This document shows positions 30,823 through 63,800 of a stretch of 64,000 nucleotides of DNA, one piece after another. Origin of the DNA: Euptelea pleiosperma (taxonomy: Eukaryota; Streptophyta; Magnoliopsida; Ranunculales; Eupteleaceae); the NCBI GenBank assembly GCA_035048495.1, contig CM068543.1, positions 29,315,751 to 29,379,750 of the forward strand. The letters run 5' to 3'. The notes beneath the pieces are model-generated. The model searched no databases. It saw only the letters and a list, made by a program, of their open reading frames with translations, and was not told where the DNA came from. Within the stretch, counting starts at the first letter, position 1. Each line of letters begins with the position of its first letter. The translations under genes and the position numbers were made by a program.

Positions 30823-31322
30823 ATTTCCCTGTTAAATTAATTCAACCGCCTAAATTTTATTTTATGTAAGGGTTGATATGGGCCCTTGGATATATGAAAC
30901 CTATAAGAAGGGGAGACAACTTCCCTTTTTGTTATATAAATTACATCTTATGGATCATAATAATGAAATAACATTAAAAACACAAAAGAATTTAAATCCT
31001 TTGAATCTTCCTCAGAATGTAACCCAATTTCATCCACTTAAGAAGCTTCTTCCACTTGTTCCGCTAGCATATATATCTTTAAGAGACCAAACTCCATTGT
31101 TCTCATGCAAAATCTCTGCAATCTCATCTTCTCCTAAGATTTCTTCATTAGAATGTGTTCCCACTATCAATTCCGCTGTAGCAGACGAAAAAATTTCAAC
31201 TTTCTCATCTCCCTCACTAATTTTTTTTTCTAACTTAGTAATTTCTGATCCAAGACCCTTCGAAACATCATTCGATAGAGCTAATCCTTCAAAATTGACA
31301 CTTCCATCTAAACCAAGCTCAG

Positions 31323-31903
31323 TGTCACGGACCTAGTCTTTGACCCTTACTAAAGACTGTGCGGCACTTGAGTTAGTCGCTCCTTTGCTAGCTCAAGTCA
31401 GCCTTTCTCCAAAGTGACTTAGGACTTGGCCTTGCCTAAGCACTACTCTCACTCAAGAAGCACACAAAGCACACAAGGACAAGAAAGCTTAGAGAATGAG
31501 GAAGTTTATATTGCTCAACTCTGGATTCTAGAATTTCCCTAGGATTTTCAGGATGATTACAAATGAGGGGGCTTGCCCCTTTATATAGGCTTCAAGCCTT
31601 ATTCTAGAATTCTCCATACTATTCTACTAAAGAATCTCTAGATGTTTCTCCTAGGAACTATCTAGAATATTTACATATAATACATGGGTAGAGATTCCCT
31701 AGAACTCTCATGAGTATTCTAGACTCTTCTATCTTCTAAGGCTCTCTACCATACTTTAGGGTCCTCTAGAAACTTCCAGAGCACTCTAGACTCCTTGAGC
31801 CATAATCGGGCTTGGTTATGGGCTTGGAACGGGCCTCGTTGGTGGGCTTGGAACGGGCTTCGTTGGCGGGCTTGGATCGGGCCCAACTAGTTACCCCGTG
31901 ACA
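31323..31903 (-). repeat. 3' LTR of the Gag-protease-chromodomain element
   Basis: 581 bp, TGTCACGGACC to CCCCGTGACA on plus. It differs from 34079-34659 by only a few substitutions by eye (for example GACTGTGCGG versus GACCGTGCGG), so the insertion is fairly recent. Confidence 0.9.
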
Positions 31904-33927
31904 CTCTCCCCCACCTGATTGCGCGACCTCCTCGGCGCGTCATCTCCATAGTATTTTGTAATTTTGTCTTTAAACTGCCATAGAGTATCTGCGTGCTCCC
32001 AAGTAGCCTCTTCATTGGGTAATCCCTTCCATTTCACCAGATACTCGATGTATAATTGGACTCCACGCCTATTCACCCGACGATCAGCGAGTATGTAGTC
32101 CACTTCCTTGCACTCTACCAGTCGTCTTCTCGTGTCTGTCCATTTCTTCCTTTTTGGTTGGCTCATGATAGCCTTCCCAGGTGGTGTCGATGCAGGCGAC
32201 TTGACACCAAGCTTCATCTCAACTGGATGACCCACCTCTTTCCTAGGTGGTAGCGCCTTTGTCTGCTTAGGCGACATCATGTCCTTGGATTTTTCAAGGA
32301 CTTTGCCTTCATTCCTAGGTAGTTCTCTATCTACCCTGTCCTCAAGATCTTCGACCATGCCCTTCTTGGTTCCCATCGATAGTTGCAAGGCCGAGAGCAT
32401 CTTTGTTCCGGTTTTGGTTCCTTTGACCGTAGGAACCATGCAAGGAGCTCATTCCTCGATGATACACACCGAGTTCACGAACGGCATAGGTATTGCCTTG
32501 ACCCTCTTCAGGAACTCCATCCCTAGTACCACTTGATAGTCATCCATAGGAACGACTGATAAATCCACGAGCCCCTTCCATTCCCCTATGCGTAGCTCCA
32601 CCCCACGAGCCATGCCTTGGATAGGTCTGGCTTGTGAATTCACCGCCTTTATCCATCCTTCTTCCTTGGATACTTTCAATCCCAATCGCTTTGCCTCTTC
32701 TCCTGAGACAAAGTTATGTGTCGCCCCGGTGTCCACCATGACCCGTGTAGGCTTCCCGTTGATATGAGCTTCCACGTACATGAGTCCCTTGCTCATAGTC
32801 TTGGAAGACTCAGGTTGCTTCTTCACAGCATTGAGGAGTTGTAAGGATCCCATCCTTGGCTCATCGTCACTGTCTTTACTTTCGCTACCCAACTTGGCAG
32901 CTAAGGCATTCAGTGCCTTCCTCTGTGGGCAGTCCCTTGCCCAATGATCCCCATCACAAAGGAAACAATTAGTCCTCGATTTGGAGTGGTCCTTACCTTC
33001 CATCCTGAACTTGCCATGCTTTGGCTTGGATGACCCCTCCTTGTGATTCGATCTCTCCTTGTGATTTGATCCTTCTTTGTCGCTTGATGTCTCATCTCCC
33101 CCACCTTTGGCATGATTACCCTTGGGCGACTTTGGCTTGGAGGAATCATCCCTCTTGAATTCCAGTAACTGTTCGGCAGCGGCCATGGCACTAGCGAGGT
33201 CTTGTACCCCACGTCATCTTAGCTCCTGTTCCGCCCATAGCTGGAGACCATCCATGAAGTTGAAGAGTAGTTCCTTCTTCGGCATGTCTGGAATCTCCAA
33301 CATTAGGGTTGAGAACTCCTTCACATAGTCTCGAATTGACCCCGTGTGCTTAAGCCGTTTTAGTTTCCTCCTTGCCTGATGTTCGGCATCTTCCGGGTAG
33401 AATTGCCTTTTGATCTCCCTTCTAAAGTCATCCCAAGTGTCGATCGTGCACGTACCTCGTTCCATGTCCGCATGACGCCTTCGCCACCACAGAATAGCCG
33501 TGTCTGTGAGGTACATGGTAACTGTGCGGATCTTAGTCTTCTCGTCGTGTAGAGAGATGGCATCGAAGTACTGTTCCATGCCCCATAAGAAGTTATCCAA
33601 CTCCTTGGCATCCCTTGACCCACCATAGGTCTTGGGCTCCGGTGTCTTGATCCTGGGCATCCCCCGTGCGACCACGCCCTCATTGGCCATGGCCTTCTTC
33701 CATAGGATCCAGTCACCTCTCATTTCTTCAACCTGATCCTTTAGAGTCTCCACCATCCCAATTACTTGGGCTTGGAAGGCATCCCTCTCTTGCTGATGAT
33801 CATGCACTAGTTCGTTGACGGTGGCCAGCATACCCCCCTTGAGTTCCTCAAATCCCGTCTTGAGGTCCTCCATGCCCATGCCTAACTCGTCGAACCTGTC
33901 ACGTGCATCCGCCATGGCAAGCTCCAC
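31891..33927 (-). pseudogene. Gag-protease-chromodomain polyprotein with two in-frame stops
   Basis: One frame runs from 33927 to the stop at 31891, inside the 3' LTR. The capsid region includes ELDNFLWGMEQYFDA, ILWWRRRH and FYPEDAEHQARRKLKRL. A zinc knuckle CFLCDGDHWARDC (CX2CX3HX4C) is near 32930-32967. The aspartic protease VDTGATHNFVS is at about 32715-32740. After a PR-RT linker (VPTVKGTKTGTKMLSALQL) the frame passes straight to a basic linker and a chromodomain (31945-32109), with YLVKWKGLPNEEATWEHAD and the aromatic residues expected for methyl-lysine binding. Stops: TGA at 33214-33216 (CGA by context) and TGA near 32449. The frame is open upstream of 33927 for about 35 codons, so Gag may start earlier. 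Confidence 0.88.
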
Positions 33928-34063
33928 CTTAGCAAGCCTGGCTTCCCAAGCAGCAAAGATATCCTGAGACTTATCCTTTTTCCTTCCCTTGGTGGGTTGG
34001 GGTTGTGCCCATCACATCCCCTTGTCTCTTCAGTGACCATTGACATGGTGCCTTCTTGAGGTT

Positions 34064-34076
34064 GGCTCTAATACCA
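34064..34076 (-). promoter_or_regulatory. tRNA-iMet primer-binding site
   Basis: Minus-strand TGGTATTAGAGCC lies 2 nt inside the 5' LTR. It matches the plant initiator-tRNA site except for one C-to-T change. Confidence 0.8.
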
Positions 34077-34078
34077 CT

Positions 34079-34659
34079 TGTCACGGACCTAGTCTTTGAC
34101 CCTTACTAAAGACCGTGCGGCACTTGAGTTAGTCGCTCCTTTGCTAGCTCAAGTCAGCCTTTCTCCAAAGTGACTTAGGACTTGGCCTTGCCTAAGCACT
34201 ACTCTCACTCAAGAAGCACACAAAGCACACAAGGACAAGAAAGCTTAGAGAATGAGGAAGCTTATATTGCTCAACTCTGGATTCTAGAATTTCCCTAGGA
34301 TTTTCAGGATGATTACAAATGAGGGGGCTTGCCCCTTTATATAGGCTTCAAGCCTTATTCTAGAATTCTCCATACTATTCTACTAAAGAATCTCTAGATG
34401 TTTCCCCTAGGAACTATCTAGAATATTTACATATAATACATGGGTAGAGATTCCCTAGAACTCTCATGAGTATTCTAGACTCTTCTATCTTCTAAGGCTC
34501 TCTACCATACTCTAGGGTCCTCTAGAAACTTCCAGAGCACTCTAGACTCCTTGAGCCATAACCGGGCTTGGTTATGGGCTTGGAACGGGCCTCGTTGGTG
34601 GGCTTGGAACGGGCTTCGTTGGCGGGCTTGGATCGGGCCCAACTAGTTACCCCATGACA
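34079..34659 (-). repeat. 5' LTR of the Gag-protease-chromodomain element
   Basis: 581-bp direct-repeat partner of 31323-31903. It ends CCCCATGACA, against CCCCGTGACA in the partner. Confidence 0.9.
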
Positions 34660-34685
34660 TCAGGCTCACAAACAGAAGAGCCCAA

Positions 34686-35105
34686 CAAGGTTTAAAGAAG
34701 GCCGTTTTAACGGTTAAACGGACTAGGGGAGTTACCGTTTAAACAGTTTAAACGGCCGTTAAAACAGATTGAAACGGCCAGGGGCAAAAATGGAATTAAA
34801 CGGATTTTAACGATTTTAAAGGAAAAAAATAAAAAAAAATGGCGCTGAAATTCAAATTTTGAAATTTGAAAATTAAAAAAAATAGAATTTAACAGAATTT
34901 AATCAGATTTTAATGGAATTAAACGGATTTAACGGCCATTTTTTTCACAAAATTTTTCAGAATTGAACGACCGTTTAAACGATTTTAACGGCCGTTAAAA
35001 CAAAAAGAAGGCCGTTTTATTCAAAACCGATAAAACGTGTTTAAACAGTTTTAACGGAAATGGGCTTGGGGCGTTACCGTTTAAACGGCCGTTTTTAAAA
35101 CCATG
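34686..35105. mobile_element. hAT-like MITE copy 3
   Basis: 420 bp, ends CAAGGTTTAAAG and TTTTAAAACCATG. The 8-bp flanks GAGCCCAA (34678-34685) and GAGCCCAG (35106-35113) agree at 7 of 8. The interior is close to the reverse complement of copy 1. Confidence 0.82.
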
Positions 35106-40746: not shown

Positions 40747-41130
40747 GATTGGCAGAGATAGGAGCGAACGTCTCGATAAGAGGTCGTTCGACTGCCATGA
40801 CTACAAAGGTAGTAGTATTGGGGGAGGCGGGTAGGAAAGGAGATGGGGAAGAATTCAGTAGAGGATCCACTGTAGGTACGTGATTCTCAGATCGAATCAA
40901 GCGCTTGTTCGGACGGTTCCAAACGGGCATACGCGAATGAGGCAACTCATCCAGGACTTTCGACAGAAGTCCGATGAGAAATTTTTCGAAGCGTGGGATA
41001 GATTCCAAGACTACCTGACTAAGTGCCCCCACCATAGCATCGACAAGGGCAATCTTGTCCATGTCTTCTACAAGGGACTTACTGATGAGTCCCGGACCAT
41101 GGTAGAGTCAATGTGCCAAGGAAATTCATG
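40747..41130 (+). pseudogene. Scrambled gag start of E1
   Basis: 40747-40945 is the reverse complement of the gag start of E2 (56942 to about 57135). On the minus strand it still reads MPVWNRPNKRLIRSENHVP. From 40946 the sequence continues forward with the capsid segment QLIQDFRQKSDEKFFEAWD and CPHHSIDKGNLVHVFYKGL. About 330 bp of gag present in E2 (roughly 57130-57457) are missing. The joint shares the short word GCAA with both parents. A 1-bp loss in an A run near 41121-41125 then shifts the frame relative to the long downstream frame. E1 cannot make a normal Gag. Confidence 0.8.
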
Positions 41131-44100
41131 TACCAAACTCCGACCGATGCATACAAATTCTTGGGAGAGTTAGGAGAAAACTCTCAACATTGGACGACTG
41201 ACTCAGAGTTTAGTCGAACCACTTCGGCCCAAAGGACAACCAAGGGACATGATGCTACAGCTGATACTGAGCTTCGATCTGTCATTCAAGAGTTGAGCAA
41301 GTCAGTCTCGGCACTGGCTGTGTCTGTCCAAAAGCCTACTCAACAGTCTACCCCAGTCATGCATGTGGGACACGAGAGCCCTATGGAATCCTGCACCCTC
41401 TGTCTGCAACCCTCCCATACTACTGAGCATTGTCCTTTGAATGAAGGATGGTCTAATCCTCTTCAGGAAGAAGTTTGTGCTTTCAGCACATACAAACCAC
41501 CCACTCAGAACTCGTATAGTCAATCTTATCATCCGGACACGAGAAACCACCCTAACTTCTCTTGGAGGCCTCAGTCTACTCAACCACAAGCTCAACCTCC
41601 ACGTCAACCTCAGGGCATGTATCCCCCTGGGTTCAATCAACCCACTAGGCAATTCAATCAGGGTCTGTACCAGCAGAGTCAGTACCCATCTACTCAGAAC
41701 CAGCAGTTCCAACAGGGTCAATACTCTGGACAATCGAGCACATTTCAGAATCAGCAAAAAAATCCCCAGAACTTTCAGAACCAACCGATTGTCCCAACTA
41801 ATTCTCCAGCATATAACTATAATGCCCCGATGAGCTCGAGTCACGAATTGGTGCCTCAGCTCCCATTAGCTGCCCCCCAACAGTCGATCCCCAAATCCGA
41901 TATCGAAGACCTTCTAGCTCAACTCATTACTCAGCAACAACAATCTATGCAACGCCTAGAGCAACAGCAACAACAATCCATGCTTCGTCTAGAGCAACGC
42001 TTAGGCAACTTGGAAGCTGAGAAAGCTAAAGGCATTTTTCCTAGCCAACCCATCGCTAACCCAAAAGGAAATGCCAAAGGAGCAGTATATGAGATCGGTT
42101 CCCAATCTCAAAGCCAGAATGAGAATTGTCAAGGGGAGGTGCAAGCTGTAACCACCCTACGATCTGGAAAAACTGTGGACATGGGAGTCCAACCACCACC
42201 GGTGCCATCTCCAGCACCCATCACTCGCACCGTGGAAACTAGTCCAAATCCTACCTCTGCTTCTTCTACCTCTGCACCAACATCAGATATCCCTGTGCAG
42301 AAATCTAAGGCTAAAGACAAATCCATTTGTCGAGTAAAGCCTCCCTTCCCGGACAGACTTGTCCAAGATAAGCGGGATCAGCAATTCTCTGAGATCTTAG
42401 ATGTCTTTAAAGACGTCCAGATCAATATCCCATTCCTTTCTGCTATCAAGCAAATCCCTTCCTATGCCAAATTCCTCAAGGACTTGTGCACAGTTAAGCG
42501 GCGTACGCATGTACCCAAAGCTGCCTTCTTGGCCGAAAAAGCTACCGCGTTCATTCAACGCAATAGTGTGATCAAACACAAGGATCCAGGTAGCCCAACT
42601 GTCCAATGTGAAATTGGAGACAACTTTAGCTGCACTGCCTTGCTAGATTTAGGGGCTAGCGTTAACCTCATACCATTCTCGGTATATCAGCAGTTAGGAC
42701 TGAAAGATATGAAGCCTACCAATGTCACCCTGAAATTGGCTGATCAGTCCATCAAGATTCCACGAGGAATCATTGAAGATGTCCTAGTAAAAGTCGCTGA
42801 CTTTTATTATCCTGTGGACTTTATCATTCTTGACACCGAGCCGTGTCAGGATAACCGCATTCCGGTCATCTTAGGCCGTCCATTCCTTGCCACCGCGAAC
42901 GCACACATCGGTTGCCGGGATGGAAACATGTCCATTGCTTTCGGAAACCTCAAAGCTGAGGTCAATATCTTTCGTCTAATGCAACAGGATGCCGATCGCG
43001 AAGTGACCGATGAAATGTGTGCCGTTGAGAGTCTAATCCCGGACTCCACCGAAGATATTCTTAAGCAGTGTCTAGAACACTTTGGAGCTGACTTTGCAAC
43101 AGAGTCAGCTATTTCTGATCTCAATGATCTTTTGGAGACTGCTCCACTGATAGAGATCCCCGCTCCACTCATCAAGTTCGAGCCTCTGATAACCATGGCC
43201 AGAGAACCCATCATTCCTTTACCTACCGAAGTCAAACCTCTTCAATCCGTGTCTTCTGTGACACCTATTTCTACTTCATCTGCTCCAATATTGGAGCTTA
43301 AGCCTCTTCCCACAGATCTTTCCTATGCCTATCTTGGTCCTAAGGAAACTTACCCTGTCATTATTGCTTCCGCTTTGTCTGAGAGTGAACGTAAGAAACT
43401 TCTCGAGCTGCTCAACGAGCACAAATCTGCGATAGGTTGGACTATAGATGATATTCGAGGCATAGACCCCTCGGTGTGCCAACATCACATCTATCTCGAG
43501 GATGAATCCAAAACCTCGCGAGAACACCAGAGGAGGTTGAACCCCGTCTTAAAGGATGTAGTCCGGGATGAGGTCCTTAAACTGTTAGATGCGGGTATCA
43601 TTTATCCCATCTCCGATAGCAAATGGGTGAGTCCTATTCATGTCGTCCCTAAAAAGGCAGGATTCACAGTTGTGGAAAATGAGAACAAGGAAATGGTCAC
43701 CCAGCGCCTGAAGAAAGGGTGGAGAGTCTGCATCGATTACCGACGACTCAACACCAACACTAGGAAGGACCATTTTCCTTTACCCTTCATAGACCAAATG
43801 TTGGAGAGACTAGCAGGTCACTCCTATTACTGCTTCCTCGATGGTTACTCAGGGTATAATCAAATATCCATCGCCCTTGAGGATCACGAGAAGACAACTT
43901 TCACCTGTCCCTTTGGCACTTTTGCCTACAAGCACATGCCCTTTGGCCTCTGCAATGCACCCGCGACCTTTCAAAGGTGTATGATGAGCATATTCTCTGA
44001 CATGGTGGAAAAATTCCTCGAAGTCTTTATTGACGACTTCTCAGTCTTTATGGACGACTTCTCAGTCTTTGGGTCATCCTTTGATGACTGTCTGAACCAT

Positions 44101-45864
44101 CTAGGGCTTGTACTTCAACGCTGTCAGGACAAGCGACTTGTCCTCAATTGGGAGAAATGCCACTTCATGGTGAAGAAGGGCATTGTTCTGGGACATGTCA
44201 TTTCCCATCAGGGCATTGAGGTCGACAAAGCTAAAATCGATATCATCTCGACCTTGCCCATTCCTAAGTCCGTACGTGACATCCGGTCCTTTTTGGGACA
44301 CGGAGGATTCTATAGGCGATTCATCAAGGACTTCTCTCAAATCGCTCGACCTCTGTCCCATCTTCTGGCTAAAGATAGTCCTTTCGACTTTAATGCTGAC
44401 TGTGTCAAGGCATTTGAGCGTCTCAAATCTGAGCTCACTACTGCGCCCATTATCCGTCCCCCGGACTGGACTCTACCTTTCGAGGTAATGTGCGATGCTT
44501 CTGACTTCGCATTAGGCGCCGTTCTAGGGCAGAGAGTTGACAAAAGGTCACACGTGATCTACTATGCGAGCAAAACTCTTAACTCTGCCCAAATAAATTA
44601 CTCCACCACTGAGAAAGAACTCCTGGCGGTAGTCTTTGCCCTTGATAAATTCCGTCAGTACCTCTTAGCCACTAAGGTGGTCGTGTACACTGATCATGCA
44701 GCCCTTCGTTATCTCATGTCGAAAAAGGAAACCAAGCCTCGATTAATTCGATGGATTCTCTTACTGCAGGAATTCGACCTCGAGATTAAGGATAAGAAAG
44801 GAACTGAGAATGTAGTGGCTGATCACTTGTCTAGACTGACTTTAGAGTCATCCTTTGACACCCAGCCCATCCCTGAGACCTTTCCAGATGAACAACTGTT
44901 CGCCATTTCTGTTAATCCTTGGTATGCGGACATTGTCAACTACCTTGTCACCGAAGAAATGCCTTCGCACTGGTCAAAACAGGACAAAAGCCAATTCCTA
45001 GCAAGAGTTAAGTACTACTCTTGGGATGACCCTTATTTGTATAAATACTGTCCTGACCAAATCATTCGTCTCTGTGTCCCTGAGTCGGACCAACTCAATA
45101 TCTTGTCCTCGTGTCACGACCAACCTTGTGGTGGTCATTTCAGTACTAAAAAAACTACAGAAAAAGTCCTGCAATGCGGATTCTACTGGCCTACACTATT
45201 TAAAGATGCCCATATCTACTGCAAAACCTGTCCTAATTGCCAGCATCTAGGCCGCATCTCCCAGAGGAACATGATGCCCCTCACTCCCATCCAGGTCGAT
45301 GAAATATTTGACATTTGGGGCATCGACTTCATGGGCCCCTTTCCCATTTCCTATGGTTTTGAGTACATTCTCCTTGCGGTAGACTATGTATCCAAATGGA
45401 TAGAAGCCATTCCCACCAAGACCAATGACCACAACGTGGTGGTCAAATTCCTAAAAGAGTTCATCTTCGCTCGATTCGGTGCCCCTAAGGCCATCATTAG
45501 TGATGGGGGCACCCATTTCTGCAATAAGATATTCGAGAACTTAATGAAAAAGTATGGGGTAACCCACAAGGTTGCCCTAGCTTATCATCCGCAGACTAGT
45601 GGTCAAGTGGAGGTTTCTAATCGTCAGATCAAGCAGATCTTGGAGAAGACAGTCAATACCACACGTAAAGACTGGTCTACTCGTCTCACTGATGCTTTAT
45701 GGGCATACAGAACCGCCTACAAGACCCCACTCGATATGTCTCCCTATCGTCTGGTCTTTGGGAAACCCTGTCATCTTCCGGTAGAGATTGAACATCGTGC
45801 CCTGTGGGCCATTAAGAAGCTCAACTTCGACCTAGACTCCGCAGGAGAGGAGCGAAAACTTTAA
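41113..45864 (+). CDS. E1 Gag C-terminus and Pol (protease, RT, RNase H, integrase), 1583 codons
   Basis: The first ATG is not the native start; the frame is the 3' part of gag-pol. Residues, counted from 41113: zinc knuckle [14 protein letters not shown] about 94-107; Gln-rich linker 130-310; aspartic protease [13 protein letters not shown] about 509; reverse transcriptase about 780-1010, with [11 protein letters not shown] near 869 and a doubled catalytic box at 971-984; RNase [14 protein letters not shown] near 1127 and [10 protein letters not shown] near 1192; integrase zinc finger (H, H, then CKTCPNC near 1370), catalytic GIDFMGPF about 1401, SDGGTHF about 1460 and [14 protein letters not shown] about 1496. 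It ends at a TAA where the family has a Gln codon, so integrase lacks its last 103 residues. Polyprotein frames of this clade are often this long. E1 is the best-kept copy here. Confidence 0.9.
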
Positions 45865-56951: not shown

Positions 56952-57959
56952 ATGCCCGTTTGGAATCGTCCGAACAAATGCTTGGTTCGATCTGAGAATC
57001 ACGTACCTACAGTGGATCCTCTACTGAATTCTTCCCCATCTCTTTCCCCACCCGCCTCCCCCAGTACTACTACCTTAGTAGTCATGGCAGTCGAATGACC
57101 TCTTATCGAGACGTTCACTCCTATCTCTGCTAATTCGCCCACTTGCATTATTCTCCCACCTACTACGGCAGTACAGTTTGAGATTAGGCCGCAGACGATC
57201 CAAATGCTGCCAACCTTTCGTGGTCTCCCAAGAGAAGACTCATATTCCCATATTAGGGAATTCCAACATGTCATCCTACTTTTCAAGAATCAGAACCTCG
57301 ATGATGACAATGTGCGTCTGCGAGTTTTCCCATTCTCGCTAAAAGACCGAGCCTCAGATTGGCTCTACTCCTTAACCGCTGATTCAATCAGCAGTTGGAA
57401 AGAGTTGGTGGGCAAATTCATGTCTAAATTCTACCCCATGACTCAGACTAACCAAATGCAACTCATCCAGGACTTTCGACAGAAGTCCGATGAAAATTTT
57501 TTTGAAGCGTGGGATAGATTCCAAGACTACCTGACTAAGTGTCCCCACCATAGCATCGACAATGGTAATCTTGTCCACGTCTTCTATAAGGGACTTACTG
57601 ATGAGTCCCGGACCATGGTAGAGTCAATGTGCCATGGAAAATTCCTGCACCAAACTCTGACCGATGCATACAAATTCTTGGGAGAGTTAGGAGAAAACTC
57701 TTAACATTGGATGACTGACTCAGAGTTTAGTCGAACCACTTCAGTCCAAAGGACAACCAAGGGACATGATGCTACAGCTGATACTGAGCTTCGATCTGTC
57801 ATTCAAGAGTTGAGCAAGTCAGTCTCAGCACTGGCTGTGTCTATACAAAAGCCTACTCAACAATCTACCCCAGTAATGCATGTGGGACACGAGAGCCCTA
57901 TGGAATCCTGCACCCTCTGTCTGCAACCCTCCCATACTACTGAGCATTGTCTTTTCAAT
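56952..57959 (+). pseudogene. E2 gag, N-terminal and capsid part
   Basis: The frame from ATG 56952 reads MPVWNRPNKCLVRSENHVP, then LPTFRGLPREDSYSHIREFQ, DRASDWLYSLTADSISSW and CPHHSIDNGNLVHVFYKGL: Athila-type Gag. Stops: TGA at 57096-57098 (CGA in E1) and TAA at 57702-57704 (CAA in E1). It ends in the zinc knuckle HTTEHC, where solo LTR B begins; the same frame resumes at 60804. It preserves the ancestral order that E1 has lost. Confidence 0.85.
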
Positions 57960-60803
57960 TGATATTCGCTCAAAAGTGCTTATTTTAAGCAATTATCCTT
58001 TTAGCGTTATTGCATTCTCCTACGTAAAATGCTCTATTTATCTACTTTTCTACGTAATAGTCTTTTCTGTTGCGTAGAACACACTTTTCTGGACGAAATG
58101 GTATATTTGCATGCATTAAACACATTTTCGGAAGTCTAGATATTAAGCCGTTCTGATAAAGTCTCATTACGCGCTTCTTGTGTCGCAGGAAACCCCGATG
58201 GGATGATTCTCGAGACTTGTGGGCCCAAATCGATCATGAACGCCCATTATCAAAGCTTAAAGAGCCCATATGCTATGACTAGAAGATATGGGCCAAATAT
58301 GGGCTGAATAAGAGGACCAAAAAGCCAGCCCAAAGAACGAAGAGAGCAGGAGAGCCAATGACCAAGAGATGGACCAAAGCGTTTAAAGCCACATGAGTTA
58401 GCAAAGAATGATAGTCGACTCTACTGGAGAAGCGTGAGGATGGTCACAGTGAAGACCAGGGTTCCAGACCCTCCGCCAGTGCTTTTCTCTCTATTTTCTG
58501 ATACTTTCTCTCTCATCTCTCCTTATTCTCTCTCTCTCTTCATCTCTCGGTCCTCGAATCTACTGACCTAACCCCAGAACTCCTGCCCATCGGCTCTGTC
58601 TCATCTCCCTTAGCTTTCTGACCGTTGGATCTTCCATCGGACCGTTGGATCTTCCATCGGACCGTTGGATCTTCAATGGGACCGTTGGATCTCTCTAGAT
58701 CCGTCGATCTACCAATCTGGGTCCCAATCAAGTCACCATCCATCCAATCGCCATCAGACTGTCTGTCACATCATCTTGTGAGACGATGGACATCATCAAT
58801 CCATGTGGGCCAGTAGCCGGGCCCATCATCATCGACCCGCTGTCCGACCAGTTAGTGGACCCCGTGAATTTCCAAATAATTTTAATTAAATTTTAAAAAA
58901 TGGGGGGTCCACTAAATGGGGAGATTCCCCAAAGAAAAGTGATGTTTTACTTAAAAATAAATAAATAAATAAATATTTTTCATATTTTTTTATTTTCAAA
59001 AAATACCCTATTTCCATTAATGGAAATAGGGAGCTTTAAGAGGAGAAGGAGAGGGGTTCGTTCGAACCCTAATCCCCTCCAATCTCTTCCTCTCCTTCCC
59101 CCAAAACTCCCCCGACGTTTTCGTCGGCTTCTTCTCCTTCTTTCTTCCTCTTTTCTTCTTTGTCTTCTTCCCCATCCTTCGCCGGAGTTGCAGGTTTGCA
59201 ACTCCGACCGTTCTTCTTCCCTTCTTCTTCTCTTCTTCTTCTTTCTCTTCTGCTTCCTTTCTTCTTCTTCTTCTTCTCTGCTATAGGTTCGACACCATCG
59301 TGGACTGCAATACCGCCTGTTGCAGCACCACCAAGCACCTCCTTCCTTGCTCCGCCTTCCATCACCACCGTTCTCCTTGCTGGTTCGTCCACATCAACAC
59401 CAGACAACAACCTGCAACCACCACTGGAGCACTGTCATCACCGGACTGGCAGGCTTCAATTCCTTCTTCTCTTTTACCAGCGTTCTACTTGCTGGTCAAC
59501 TGAAGTTGCCCCTCCTCTTTGCACATGAACACCGCTCCATTCTTTCAACTGGATTTGCAGGTCCCACTGCAAGCACCACAAGTTAACACCTCGTGCATCG
59601 CTCTACCTACCCCCCACTTCTTCCTCGCCTGCCACGCAACGCTCCCGAAACGCTGCTGCCCACGTACCGCCTCCACCACGACCTGCAACTCTTGAGTTGT
59701 AGGTCCGCCTGCAACCTCCACACCGCCTCCTCTCACGTCGCCGACCCACCACCATCAACTCAATCATAAGTGTCTTCATATAGTGGCTACCATCTCCTCC
59801 TGCATCTCCACATCATCGGACTGAACCAGCACCACGTCCAGCCATTTTCCGCCCAGATTTGCAACATCGCCATCCCCACGGTGATGATCCTCCAAGTACT
59901 ACTTCTGTAGCTTTCAATGACGTCGGGGCACCATTATTTCGGGCAGACCTGCAACTCCGGCAGGTCTGCAAGGAGAAGAACCACCGGATCTCCTTCATGG
60001 TGAGTCAACCTCATCCCCTCCGCAAACACGTCTTCCCCAAGATGCCTGACCACCGCCTGCTCCTCTCCTTGACGCCTGCAACTATGAGGCCAGTCCCTCA
60101 CCCTGTAACGCACCAGCACTCATCTCACCATGCTTCTCATCGATCGGTCATCACCACTTCATATTGCCCACGATACCTCCTCCAACGGACTCCAAACGGC
60201 CCAAGCCTCTAACCGTTACAAGTTCCATTGGAGGAATTTAATCGGCGCCTCATACCTGAGCCAATCCACTCCCATAAAGGGCCGGTCTCTGATCATCATT
60301 TCGTAGGTATTTGAGGTAATTCTCTCACTTTCACTCTCCTCCTTTAGTTTCTCTCTCTAGGATAGACTTCTTTGATCTTTCTCTCTCTACATTATTTTCT
60401 CTCTCTAGTCTTTAGCATATTCTCGTTCTCTCTCTATACCTTCCATTTTCTCTCTCTAAAATGCCTCCTCTCTCATTTTCTCTCTCTACCTATTCTCCTT
60501 ATATTTTTCTCTCTCTAGAATGTTTTTTTTTTTTAGTCTGGCTTTGACTGTTGCTAATTCAAATATTGTAAGGACATTTTGATTAATGAATGATGAAGTT
60601 TGTTTTTATCTATTATTTCTTGTGATGGTCCGTCAGTTTTTGTTCTTATTCGCGCTAATCCGACTAATCTCGAGTGCGGATCGACATCCGACATGAGCCA
60701 CTGTGCAAAAATACTCATTTTACAGGTTAAAAGTCTCGGATAATTAAAAATGTGTTGAGATTAGGGTTTCCGTTACCAACGACACGGAAAAACCCTACTT
60801 TCA
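57960..60803 (+). mobile_element. Solo LTR B of the E1/E2 family, inside E2 gag
   Basis: 2844 bp, TGATATTCGC to CTACTTTCA. Flanks TCAAT (57955-57959) and TGAAT (60804-60808) agree at 4 of 5. E1 shows the uninterrupted site (TTTGAATGAAGG), so TGAAT is the original. Hairpin at 59182-59206. No internal region. Confidence 0.88.
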
Positions 60804-63800
60804 TGAATGAAGGATGGTCAAATCCTCTTCAAGAAGAAGTTTGTGCTTTCAGCACATACAAACCACCCACTCAGAACTCGTATAGTCAATCTTATCATCC
60901 TAACACGAGAAACCACCCTAACTTCTCTTGGAGGCCTCAGTCTACTCAACCGCCAGCTCAACCTCTGCGTCAACCTCAGGGCATGTATCCTCCTGGGTTC
61001 AATCAACCCAATAGGCAATTCAATCAGGGACAATACCAGCAGAGTCAGTACCCATCTACTCAAAACCAGCAGTTCCAACAGGGTCAATACTCTGGACAAT
61101 CGAGCACATTTCAGAATCAGCAAAGAGTTCCCTAGAACTTTCAGAACCAACAGATTGTCCCAACTAATTCTCCAGCCTATAACTATAATGCCCCGATGAG
61201 CTCGAGTCGTGAATTGGTGCCTCAGCTCCCATTAGCTGCCCCCCAATAGTCAGTCCCCAAATCCAGTATTGAAGACCTTCTAGCTCAACTCATTACTTAG
61301 CAACAACAATCTATGCAACGCCTAGAGCAACAACAACAACAATCCATGCTTCGTCTAGAGCAACGCTTAGGCAACCTGGAAGCTGAGAAAGCTAAAGGCA
61401 TCTTCCCTAGCCAACCCATCGCTAACCCAAAAGGAAATGCCAAAGGGGCAGTATATGAGATCGGTTCCCAATCTCAGAGCCAGAATAAGAATTGTCAAGG
61501 GGAAGTGCAAGCTGTAACCACCCTACGATCTGGAAAAATTGTGGACATGGGAGTCCAATCACCGCAGGTGCCATCTCCGGCACCCATCACTCGTACAGAG
61601 GAAACTAGTACCAATCCTACCTCTGCTTCTTCTACCTCTACACCAACATCAGATATCCCTGTGCAGAAATCGAAGGCTAAAGACAAATCCATTTGTCGAG
61701 TAAAGCCTCCCTTCCCGGATAGACTTGTCCAAGATAAGCGGGATCAGCAATTCTCAGAGATCTTAGACGTCTTTAAAGACGTCTAGATCAATATCCCATT
61801 CCTTTCTGCTATCAAGCAAATCCCCTCCTATGCCAAATTCCTCAAGGACTTGTGCACAGTTAAGCGACGTACGCATGTACCCAAAGCTGCCTTCTTGGCC
61901 AAAAAAGCTACCGCGTTCATTCAACGCAACAGTGTGATCAAACACAAGGATCCAAGTAGCCCAACTGTCCAATGTGAAATTGGAGACAGCTTTAGCTGCA
62001 CTGCCTTGCTAGATTTAGGGGCTAGTGTTAACCTCATACCATTCTCGATATATCAGCAGTTAGGACTGAAAGATATGAAGCCTACCAATGTCACCCTGAA
62101 ATTGGCTGATCAGTCCATCAAGATTCTAAGAGGAATCATTGAAGATGTCCTAGTAAAAGTCGCTGACTTTTATTATCCTGTGGACTTTATCATTCTCGAC
62201 ATTGAGCCGTGTCAGGATAACTGCATTCCGGTCATCTTAGGCAGTCCATTCCTTGCCACTGTGAATGCACACATCGGGTGCCGGGACGGAAACATGTCCA
62301 TTGCTTTCGGTAACCTCAAAGCTGAGGTCAACATCTTTCGTTTAATGCAATAGGATGCCGATCGCGATGTGGTCGATGAAATGTGTGCCGTTGAGAGTCT
62401 AATCCCGGACTCCACCGAAGATATTCTTAAACAGTGTCTAGCACACTTTGGGGCTGACTTTGCAACAGAGTCAGCTATTTCTGATCTCAATGATCTTTTG
62501 GAGACTGCTCCACTACTAGAGATCCCCGCTCCACTCATCGACTTTGAGCCTCTGATAACCATGGCCAGAGAACCTATCCTTCCTTTACCTACTGAAATCA
62601 AACCTCTTCAATCCGTGTCTTCTGTGACACCTACTTCAACTCCATCTGCTCCAACATTGGAGCTAAAACCTCTTCCCACAGATCTTTCCTATGCCTATCT
62701 TGATCTTAAGGAAACCTACCCTGTGATTATTGCTTCCACTTTGTCTGTAAGTGAACGTAAGAAACTTCTTGAGTTGCTCAACGAGCACAAATCTGCGATA
62801 AGGTGGACTATAGAGGATATTCGAGGCATAGACCCCTCAGTGTGCCAACATCACATCTATCTCGAGGATGAATCCAAAACCTCTCGTGAACACCAGAGGA
62901 GGTTGAACCCCGTCTTGAAGGAAGTAGTCCGGGATGAGGTCATCAAACTGTTAGATGCGGGTATCATCTACCCCATCTCCGACAGCAAATGGGTGAGTCC
63001 TATTCATGTCGTCCCTAAAAAGGCAGGATTCACAGTTGTGGAAAATGAGAATAAGGAAATGGTCACCCAGCGCCTGAAGAAAGGGTGGAGAGTCTGCATC
63101 GATTACAAATGACTCAACACCAACACTAGGAATGACCATTTTCTGTTACCGTTCATAGACCAGATGTTGGAGAGACTAGTAGGTCACTCTTATTACTGCT
63201 TCCTTAATGGTTACTCTGGGTATAATCAAATACCCATCGCCCCTGAGGATCACGAGAAGACAACTTTCACCTATCCATTTGGCACTTTTGCCTATAAGCG
63301 CATGCCCTTTGGCCTCTGCAATGCACCCGCGACCTTTCAACGGTGTATGATGAGTATATTCTCCGACATGGTGGAAAGATTCCTCGAAGTCTTTATGGAC
63401 GACTTCTCAATTTTTGGGTCATCCTTTGATGACTGTCTGAACCATCTAGGGCTTGTACTTCAATGCTGTCAGACAAACGACTTGTCCTCAATTGGGAGAA
63501 ATGCCACTTCATGGTGAAGAAAGGCATAGTTCTGGGATATGTCATTTCCCATCAGGGCATTGAGGTCGACAAAGCTAAAATCGATATCATCTCGACCTTG
63601 CCCATTCCTAAGTCCGTGCGTGACATCCGGTCCTTTTTGGGACACGGAGGATTCTATAGGCGATTCATTAAGGACTTCTCTCAAATCGCTCGACCTCTGT
63701 CCCATCTTCTGGCTAAAGATAGTCCTGTCGACTTTAATGCTGACTGTGTCAAGGCATTTGAGCGTCTCAAATCTGAGCTCACTACTGCGCCCATTATCCG

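What the first reader, a model, noticed from the sequence alone, without database searches (positions are those of the whole stretch)
31323..34659. LTR element that keeps Gag, protease and chromodomain but has lost the whole RT-RNase H-integrase block
The frame passes from the protease-RT linker directly to a chromodomain, which chromoviruses normally carry at the C-terminus of integrase. LTRs, primer site and polypurine tract are intact and the two LTRs are nearly identical, so it probably moved in this form rather than decaying in place. Gag-only plant LTR elements are known; a Gag-protease-chromodomain fusion could direct particles to chromatin without integrase. Whether it is a replicating family is inference.
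Basis: partly seen in the sequence, partly recalled or inferred. Interest (0 to 1): 0.75.

Follow-up and report, generated by a model that had tools for sequence, protein, structure and literature searches.

The report
Jumping gene keeping capsid and chromatin-reader
A plant retrotransposon that lost its copying and inserting enzymes but kept its capsid protein, protease and a chromatin-reading domain has multiplied to dozens of copies, apparently by borrowing the enzymes of an intact relative, and selection seems to have kept the chromatin reader although its usual partner, the integrase, is gone.

Summary
Confirmed and extended. Window 31323-34659 (minus strand) is an LTR element with 581-bp LTRs (99.0% identical), primer site, polypurine tract and 4-bp TSD. 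It encodes Gag and protease, then a chromodomain; RT, RNase H and integrase core are absent. It is not a local deletion: about 67 of 150 scored matches in the window's genome cross the junction. Of 38 copies fetched, 30 have both ends; 29 of these have exact 4-bp TSDs, 26 different. Ten of 33 full copies have an open frame. Gag and protease are under purifying selection; the chromodomain too, with weaker support. An autonomous chromovirus in the same genome has matching LTR ends, PBS, PPT and 87.6% identical Gag-PR; its 2.6-kb RT-integrase block is replaced here by about 80 bp holding an integrase remnant. Derived and autonomous copies share the target consensus AGC-NNNN-GCT. One young copy is a chimera of both, which suggests co-packaging. 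A second reduced family in this genome has another junction, and proteins of other plants suggest more cases. The window copy is itself decayed. What the chromodomain does in this protein is inferred, not shown.

The parts
34079..34659 (-). 5' LTR of the element
   Evidence: 581 bp, 98.97% identical to the other LTR
31323..31903 (-). 3' LTR of the element
   Evidence: the reading frame ends inside it at the stop 31891-31893
34064..34076 (-). primer binding site TGGTATTAGAGCC (tRNA-Met type, name recalled)
   Evidence: the autonomous relatives L047 and L048 have TGGTATCAGAGC at the same place
31904..31916 (-). polypurine tract AGGTGGGGGAGAG
   Evidence: same tract in L047, L048 and the second family L049
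33214..34011 (-). Gag part of the frame (stop at 33214-33216; length difference near 33996/33997 against the other full copies)
   Evidence: Retrotrans_gag 6e-19, Ty3_capsid 2e-10
32452..33213 (-). zinc knuckle region and aspartic protease part (stop at 32449-32451)
   Evidence: gag-asp_proteas 4e-17; the zinc knuckle match itself is weak (E 0.38)
32191..32448 (-). protease-RT linker up to the junction
   Evidence: aligns to autonomous element L047 up to its RT leader; less constrained than Gag and PR
32119..32190 (-). junction zone with a remnant of the integrase stretch after the catalytic core
   Evidence: DNA not aligned to L047 across internal 1889-1968; 14-19 residues match L047 aa about 1373-1392, 0 of 500 shuffles reach the score
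31960..32115 (-). chromodomain
   Evidence: PF00385 6e-12; modelled with pLDDT about 90 or more in this stretch, PDB matches listed are chromodomain entries
31319..31322 (.). target site duplication TCAG (left); preceded by AGC at 31316-31318
34660..34663 (.). target site duplication TCAG (right); followed by GCT at 34664-34666

Best explanation
The element is one copy of a replicating, semi-autonomous chromovirus family. The family arose from an autonomous chromovirus lineage still present in the same genome (L047/L048 type) by loss of RT, RNase H and most of the integrase. Its transcript encodes a single Gag-protease-chromodomain protein. Shown: many independent insertions, a shared junction, selection on the protein, shared ends and target site with the autonomous relative, and recombination with it. 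Inferred: the RNA is packaged with the autonomous RNA in mixed Gag particles, copied by the partner's RT and inserted by the partner's integrase as a 4-bp staggered cut at AGC-NNNN-GCT. Inferred and weaker (my probability about 0.4): the chromodomain, now attached to the Gag-protease product, tethers the incoming particle or pre-integration complex to chromatin.
For: Family: 38 candidates scored for the whole element; about 67 of 150 rows cross the junction (hand count); 29 of 30 copies with both ends have exact 4-bp TSDs, 26 distinct 4-mers; LTR identity 94.87-100% in 29 copies, 11 at 99.8% or more. Selection: 10 of 33 full copies open over 697 codons, all 10 among the 14 with LTR identity 99.2% or more; dN/dS in those 14: Gag 0.15, PR 0.19, chromodomain 0.13 (bootstrap 0.03-0.40), linker 0.72 (0.42-1.44); shared against singleton variants, N/S 0.68 against 3.02 in Gag, p 9e-13; chromodomain in 53 copies 1.44 against 4.0, p 0.026. 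Partner: L047/L048 have an open 1547-aa frame; pieces of L047 match RVT_1, RNase H, H2C2, rve (32.4 bits, just under the 32.6 cut-off), SH3 and Chromo; 13 of 44 rows hold its RT-integrase block in full at 89% identity or more; Gag-PR 87.6% identical; same LTR ends, PBS, PPT and AGC-NNNN-GCT site. Chimera L077: 97-99% L047-like up to about 2.4 kb, A-like (97-99%) at junction and chromodomain, L047-like again in the 3' LTR, LTRs 100% identical.
Against: The chromodomain signal is moderate: with 33 copies the shared/singleton contrast gave p 0.31, in the 14 young copies p 0.36. In the 53-copy set the linker gave the same kind of contrast (1.74 against 4.94, p 0.0008), singletons exceeded the neutral ratio of about 2.4, and against that ratio the shared variants reach only P 0.029 for the chromodomain and 0.048 for the linker, so that set does not separate the two. 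In the second family the chromodomain has lost 7 core residues and shows weak constraint (0.49, bootstrap 0.23-1.06), so the intact domain is dispensable there. No expression, protein or binding data exist here. Partner dependence is inferred, not measured.
Confidence: 0.85

Rival explanations
1. Local deletion: a full chromovirus inserted here and later lost its RT-integrase block in place.
For: The window copy has two stops and a length change in the Gag start region, so it is decaying; alike LTRs alone cannot exclude it.
Against: The same junction occurs in dozens of insertions with different TSDs, 11 of 29 dated ones with LTRs 99.8-100% identical.
Confidence: 0.01
2. The chromodomain is carried along passively: it sits next to the polypurine tract that must be kept in cis, so an internal deletion tends to spare it, and it has no role in the Gag-PR protein.
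For: In the second family the chromodomain core lost 7 residues; in the 53-copy set chromodomain and linker are not clearly different. I raised this from 0.30 to 0.35 after rechecking.
Against: dN/dS 0.13 against 0.72 for the linker in the young copies, upper bootstrap bound 0.40; 0.09 against 0.33 towards the autonomous L047; Gag- or PR-chromodomain proteins with other junctions elsewhere. Cis signals should lower synonymous change as well.
Confidence: 0.35
3. The fusion protein is an interfering Gag: it competes in the partner's particles and holds them on chromatin, which favours its own RNA at the partner's cost.
For: A-type places (57 at 67% amino-acid identity or more, hand count) outnumber autonomous blocks (13 at 89% DNA identity or more), though the two thresholds differ; the chimera suggests shared particles.
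Against: No data on the partner's fitness; copy number ratios can have many causes.
Confidence: 0.15
4. The Gag- or PR-chromodomain proteins found in other plants are gene-model or assembly artefacts, and recurrence outside this genome is not real.
For: Several Escallonia and Vitis records are automatic gene models; spliced models can skip the RT block.
Against: Vitis clusters P0064 and P0076 hold 12 and 19 member sequences, and P0064 ends in a VGESVT stretch like the window element's reading of PPT plus LTR start. The second family in this genome was read from DNA in seven copies.
Confidence: 0.2

Closest known systems
RLG_Sabrina_SA and RLG_WHAM of wheat (semi-autonomous; PMC9744471, abstract and passages)
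   Same: Keeps Gag, and in Sabrina_SA an adjoining protease; lacks the other enzymes; co-evolves with an autonomous partner.
   Different: The passages seen mention no chromodomain on the GAG-Pro product.
RLG_Quinta of einkorn wheat (PMC11302176, abstract and passages)
   Same: Gag-encoding derivative of a chromovirus with conserved LTR ends and PBS, proposed to be mobilised by its autonomous partner.
   Different: [quoted passage not shown] no protease or chromodomain reported in the passages seen.
TR-GAG elements (described in PMC5818461, passages; original definition recalled, not read)
   Same: LTR elements with Gag but without Pol.
   Different: Here protease and chromodomain are retained. 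[quoted passage not shown]
CR deletion derivatives in grasses, such as CR1-Si-R1del (128 copies) and noaCR5-Sb (PMC4079200, passages)
   Same: Derivatives of chromoviruses that multiplied, in families that recombined.
   Different: CRM-type elements; no Gag-PR-chromodomain product in the passages seen.
Galadriel-clade chromoviruses such as Beon1 of beet (PMC3605345, passages)
   Same: Autonomous element of similar size (6038 bp, 631-bp LTRs); 4-bp TSDs are commonest in Galadriel (PMC6911290, passages).
   Different: Beon1 is full length with a 5-bp TSD; clade membership of L047 was not tested with RT references.

Membership tests
LTR retrotransposon | two LTRs, PBS, PPT, TSD | tested here: met
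Chromovirus (Ty3/gypsy with chromodomain on the integrase) | integrase with C-terminal chromodomain in the same element | tested here: not met
   No RT or integrase family in the window element; met by its autonomous relative L047, with rve just under its curated cut-off. The element is a derivative of a chromovirus, not a complete one.
Galadriel clade | RT phylogeny with reference Galadriel elements | not tested
   No labelled references at hand; only the 4-bp TSD and size fit.
TR-GAG | Gag retained, Pol region lacking | tested here: not met
   Protease and chromodomain, both Pol parts, are retained.
Semi-autonomous GAG-Pro element | open Gag-protease frame without RT and integrase, in many copies | tested here: met
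   10 of 33 full copies open; no RT or integrase family in the window copy. The chromodomain is extra.
Non-autonomous partner of an autonomous element | conserved LTR ends, PBS and PPT with an autonomous element in the same genome | tested here: met
Non-autonomous partner of an autonomous element | mobilised in trans | tested here: inconclusive
   Indirect: shared target site and chimera L077.

The most novel reading that the evidence does not exclude
Fusion of Gag-protease to a chromodomain with loss of the polymerase and integrase is a recurrent and adaptive route for chromovirus derivatives. Several plant lineages have independently turned a targeting domain of integrase into a targeting domain of the particle, so that non-autonomous RNA is delivered to chromatin by its own Gag product while the enzymes are borrowed. 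In this lineage the integrase also prefers a palindromic site AGC-NNNN-GCT, used alike by autonomous and derived elements.
Probability: 0.35. Interest if true: 0.8.

Novelty: new variant of a known kind. Interest (0 to 1): 0.64.

Why it matters
Chromodomains of these elements are discussed as parts of integrase that steer insertion. A family in which the domain survives, and seems to be selected, without the integrase makes it possible to ask what the domain does apart from catalysis, and whether Gag products can take part in targeting. The same genome holds the autonomous partner, a chimera and a second reduced family whose chromodomain has degraded, which is a natural comparison set. The sharp palindromic target consensus contrasts with the statement that most plant LTR elements do not recognise particular sequences (PMC6317226, passages).

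Tried and rejected
Protein search with the linker-chromodomain piece alone found nothing; the Gag piece and a PR-linker-chromodomain piece worked. A scan of viral contigs with the Gag piece found no relative. PDB searches of the Gag piece and the linker piece gave nothing usable. I first read the second family (L049, L050) as an independent descent from L051 because of its Gag. That was too simple: it is a mosaic, Gag 91-93% identical in DNA to L051 but PR nearer to the L047/A lineage. The independence of its deletion rests on a different internal remnant, the end of RNase H; an ancestor with both remnants is not excluded. I considered a nuclear localisation signal in the basic junction residues; they evolve near neutrally, so I dropped it. 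A pairing test of left and right half-sites was weak: the consensus is palindromic, but within-site matching (0.789) is little above shuffled pairing (0.749). Rows dropped: 8 of the 38 fetched copies lack one or both ends and are not in the TSD counts; 5 of 38 are not in the coding counts because the internal region is incomplete or internally deleted.

Full report
What is there. The element occupies 31323-34659 on the minus strand. Its LTRs (31323-31903 and 34079-34659) are 581 bp and differ at 6 sites, all transitions. A 4-bp duplication TCAG flanks it, a PBS follows the 5' LTR and a PPT precedes the 3' LTR. Three contiguous stop-to-stop pieces of one frame give Gag, zinc knuckle plus protease, and linker plus chromodomain. 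No RT, RNase H or integrase family is listed for them at E up to 1. The window copy is decayed: two in-frame stops (33214-33216, 32449-32451), and near 33996/33997 a length difference against the 32 other full copies, which have 1, 7, 8 or 10 more bases there (L041 also has a one-base gap). By LTR divergence it inserted about 0.4 million years ago at 1.3e-8 substitutions per site per year, the rate quoted in PMC5818461 (passages).

It is a family. The genome of the window (G000, 613 Mb) gave 55 match rows from 38 scored candidates (297 in the first look); such counts are lower bounds. I fetched 38 places with flanks. Thirty copies have both ends: 29 have an exact 4-bp TSD, none matches over 5 bp, two of the 29 (L024, L046) match over 6 bp, and there are 26 different 4-mers. 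In 29 copies with complete LTR pairs, identity runs from 94.87 to 100%; 11 are at 99.8% or more. Thirty-three copies have the whole internal region without the RT-integrase block. A translated search with the linker-chromodomain piece gave 150 rows; by hand count about 67 run from query residue 60 or earlier to 145 or later and so cross the junction, 57 of them at 67% identity or more (A-type) and about 10 more distant.

The protein is under selection. Ten of 33 full copies have neither stop nor frameshifting indel over 697 codons; all 10 are among the 14 with LTR identity of 99.2% or more, and none of the 14 older dated copies is open. In the 14 young copies dN/dS is 0.15 for Gag, 0.25 for the zinc-knuckle region, 0.19 for protease, 0.13 for the chromodomain core (bootstrap 0.03-0.40) and 0.72 for the linker (0.42-1.44); in all 33 copies 0.17, 0.29, 0.28, 0.18 and 0.57. 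As an internal control, variants found in one copy only have N/S of 3.02 in Gag (neutral expectation 2.45), shared variants 0.68 (p 9e-13); protease 2.21 against 0.92 (p 0.006); linker 4.12 against 1.91 (p 0.03); chromodomain 2.20 against 1.13 (p 0.31). With 20 further pieces (53 copies) the chromodomain gave 4.0 against 1.44 (p 0.026), but the linker gave 4.94 against 1.74 (p 0.0008) and the junction filler 5.33 against 2.17 (p 0.34); against the neutral ratio, shared variants reach P 0.029, 0.048 and 0.44. That set thus shows constraint on the chromodomain but does not separate it from the linker. Towards the autonomous L047, dN/dS is 0.08 (Gag), 0.06 (PR), 0.33 (linker) and 0.09 (chromodomain), which includes the autonomous branch (five open copies). 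Selection on the chromodomain is supported, but less firmly than on Gag.

The autonomous partner. L047 and L048 are full-length chromoviruses with LTRs of 498 and 513 bp (99.8 and 100% identical) and an open frame of 1547 aa. Pieces of L047 match RVT_1, RNase H, H2C2, rve (32.4 bits, just under the curated 32.6), SH3_Tf2-1 and Chromo. The window element aligns to L047 at 80.6% over internal 1-1888 and 78.7% over 1969-2175; between them L047 has 2561 bp and the window element 80 bp. Gag-PR proteins are 87.6% identical. LTR ends, PBS and PPT agree. Thirteen of 44 rows hold the RT-integrase block at full length with 89% identity or more, fewer than the A-type places, though the thresholds differ.

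The junction. In the 24 residues between linker and chromodomain, 14 (in an older, longer version 19) match L047 residues about 1373-1392, between integrase core and SH3-like domain; 0 of 500 shuffles reach the score. Some older copies have a longer version. So the family seems to have lost two stretches and kept a scrap of integrase.

Shared target site. Around the 4-bp TSD the sites read AGC-NNNN-GCT: C at -1 in 30 of 30, G at +1 in 28 of 30, A at -3 in 25, G at -2 in 24, C at +2 in 23, T at +3 in 23, with little signal beyond (binomial P about 2e-20 for C and 9e-19 for G). Eight further elements with both ends (L047, L048, L051, L049, L050, L053, L056, L077) have C at -1 in 8 of 8 and G at +1 in 7 of 8. 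Three second-family copies could be read on the left only: AGC (L052), AGA (L054), ACC (L055). Jedlicka et al. report 4-bp TSDs as commonest in Galadriel, only a weak palindrome preference overall, and the Tos17 palindrome (PMC6911290, passages). Neumann et al. state that most plant LTR elements do not recognise particular sequences (PMC6317226, passages).

Recombination. L077 (C7:33727300-33730900) is 97-99% identical to L047 through the 5' LTR, Gag and protease, then 97-99% identical to an A copy (L014) at junction and chromodomain, then 96-99% L047-like in the 3' LTR; its LTRs are 100% identical, with TSD CTGT. The simplest cause is template switching in a shared particle, which requires both RNAs in it (established knowledge of retroelements).

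Recurrence. A second reduced family (L049, L050, L052-L056) also has a protease-chromodomain junction without RT. Its junction keeps the end of RNase H instead of integrase, its Gag is 91-93% identical in DNA to another autonomous element, L051, and its protease is nearer to L047 and A (74-78% in protein) than to L051 (43%); the last 200 bp do not resolve its place (79-83% to all). Its chromodomain lacks 7 core residues in all seven copies and shows weak constraint (0.49, 0.23-1.06), while Gag-PR has 0.37. Outside this genome, 4 of 120 listed Gag hits (285 in all) carry Gag plus Chromo without protease domains, all from Vitis; in a Gag tree they form a group (98/100) inside a clade (94/99) with Vitis Gag-PR proteins and two unnamed ones, apart from this family. 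In the PR-to-chromodomain search, 6 of 120 listed hits (375 in all) have protease plus Chromo without RVT_1 (P0157, P0158, P0173, P0193, P0198, P0200); none of the 120 has Gag, protease and Chromo by Pfam and no RT. P0193 is a protease-linker-chromodomain protein with another junction. Some of these may be gene-model artefacts.

Structure. The window piece of 185 aa modelled with 9 sequences has mean pLDDT 60.1; 52 residues reach 90, in the blocks that hold the chromodomain. One PDB match has E under 0.001 (7vrf, a chromodomain with H3K9me3); the other 49 listed are also chromodomain entries or proteins with chromodomains. Seed-plant chromovirus chromodomains lack the aromatic cage according to PMC6317226 (passages), so the ligand is unknown.

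Print status. Ten library searches and passages of eight papers showed Gag-only and GAG-Pro derivatives but no Gag-PR-chromodomain family; the library holds open-licence papers only, so this is not proof of absence.

Noticed in passing
L054, L055, L056: Three copies of the second family share a further deletion of about 525 bp inside Gag, which leaves protease and chromodomain with little capsid: perhaps a still more reduced subfamily.
   Followed up: partly
L049, L050 against L051: The second family is a mosaic: Gag from one autonomous lineage, protease from another.
   Followed up: yes
window 31904-31918 and L047, L048, L049, L050, L051: The three autonomous elements read have TAG just before the PPT where A copies and the second family mostly have CAG and read on into the LTR.
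   Followed up: partly
window 41089-45864 and 57099-63112: Long Athila/Tat-like frames (name recalled), one of 1591 aa open, the other broken into several frames.
   Followed up: no
window 34700-35100: Repeated TTTAAACGGCCGTT-type motifs just beside the element; nature unknown.
   Followed up: no
P0157, P0158, P0173, P0200 (Escallonia rubra): Proteins with protease, integrase zinc-binding domain and chromodomain but no RT by Pfam; two were read.
   Followed up: partly
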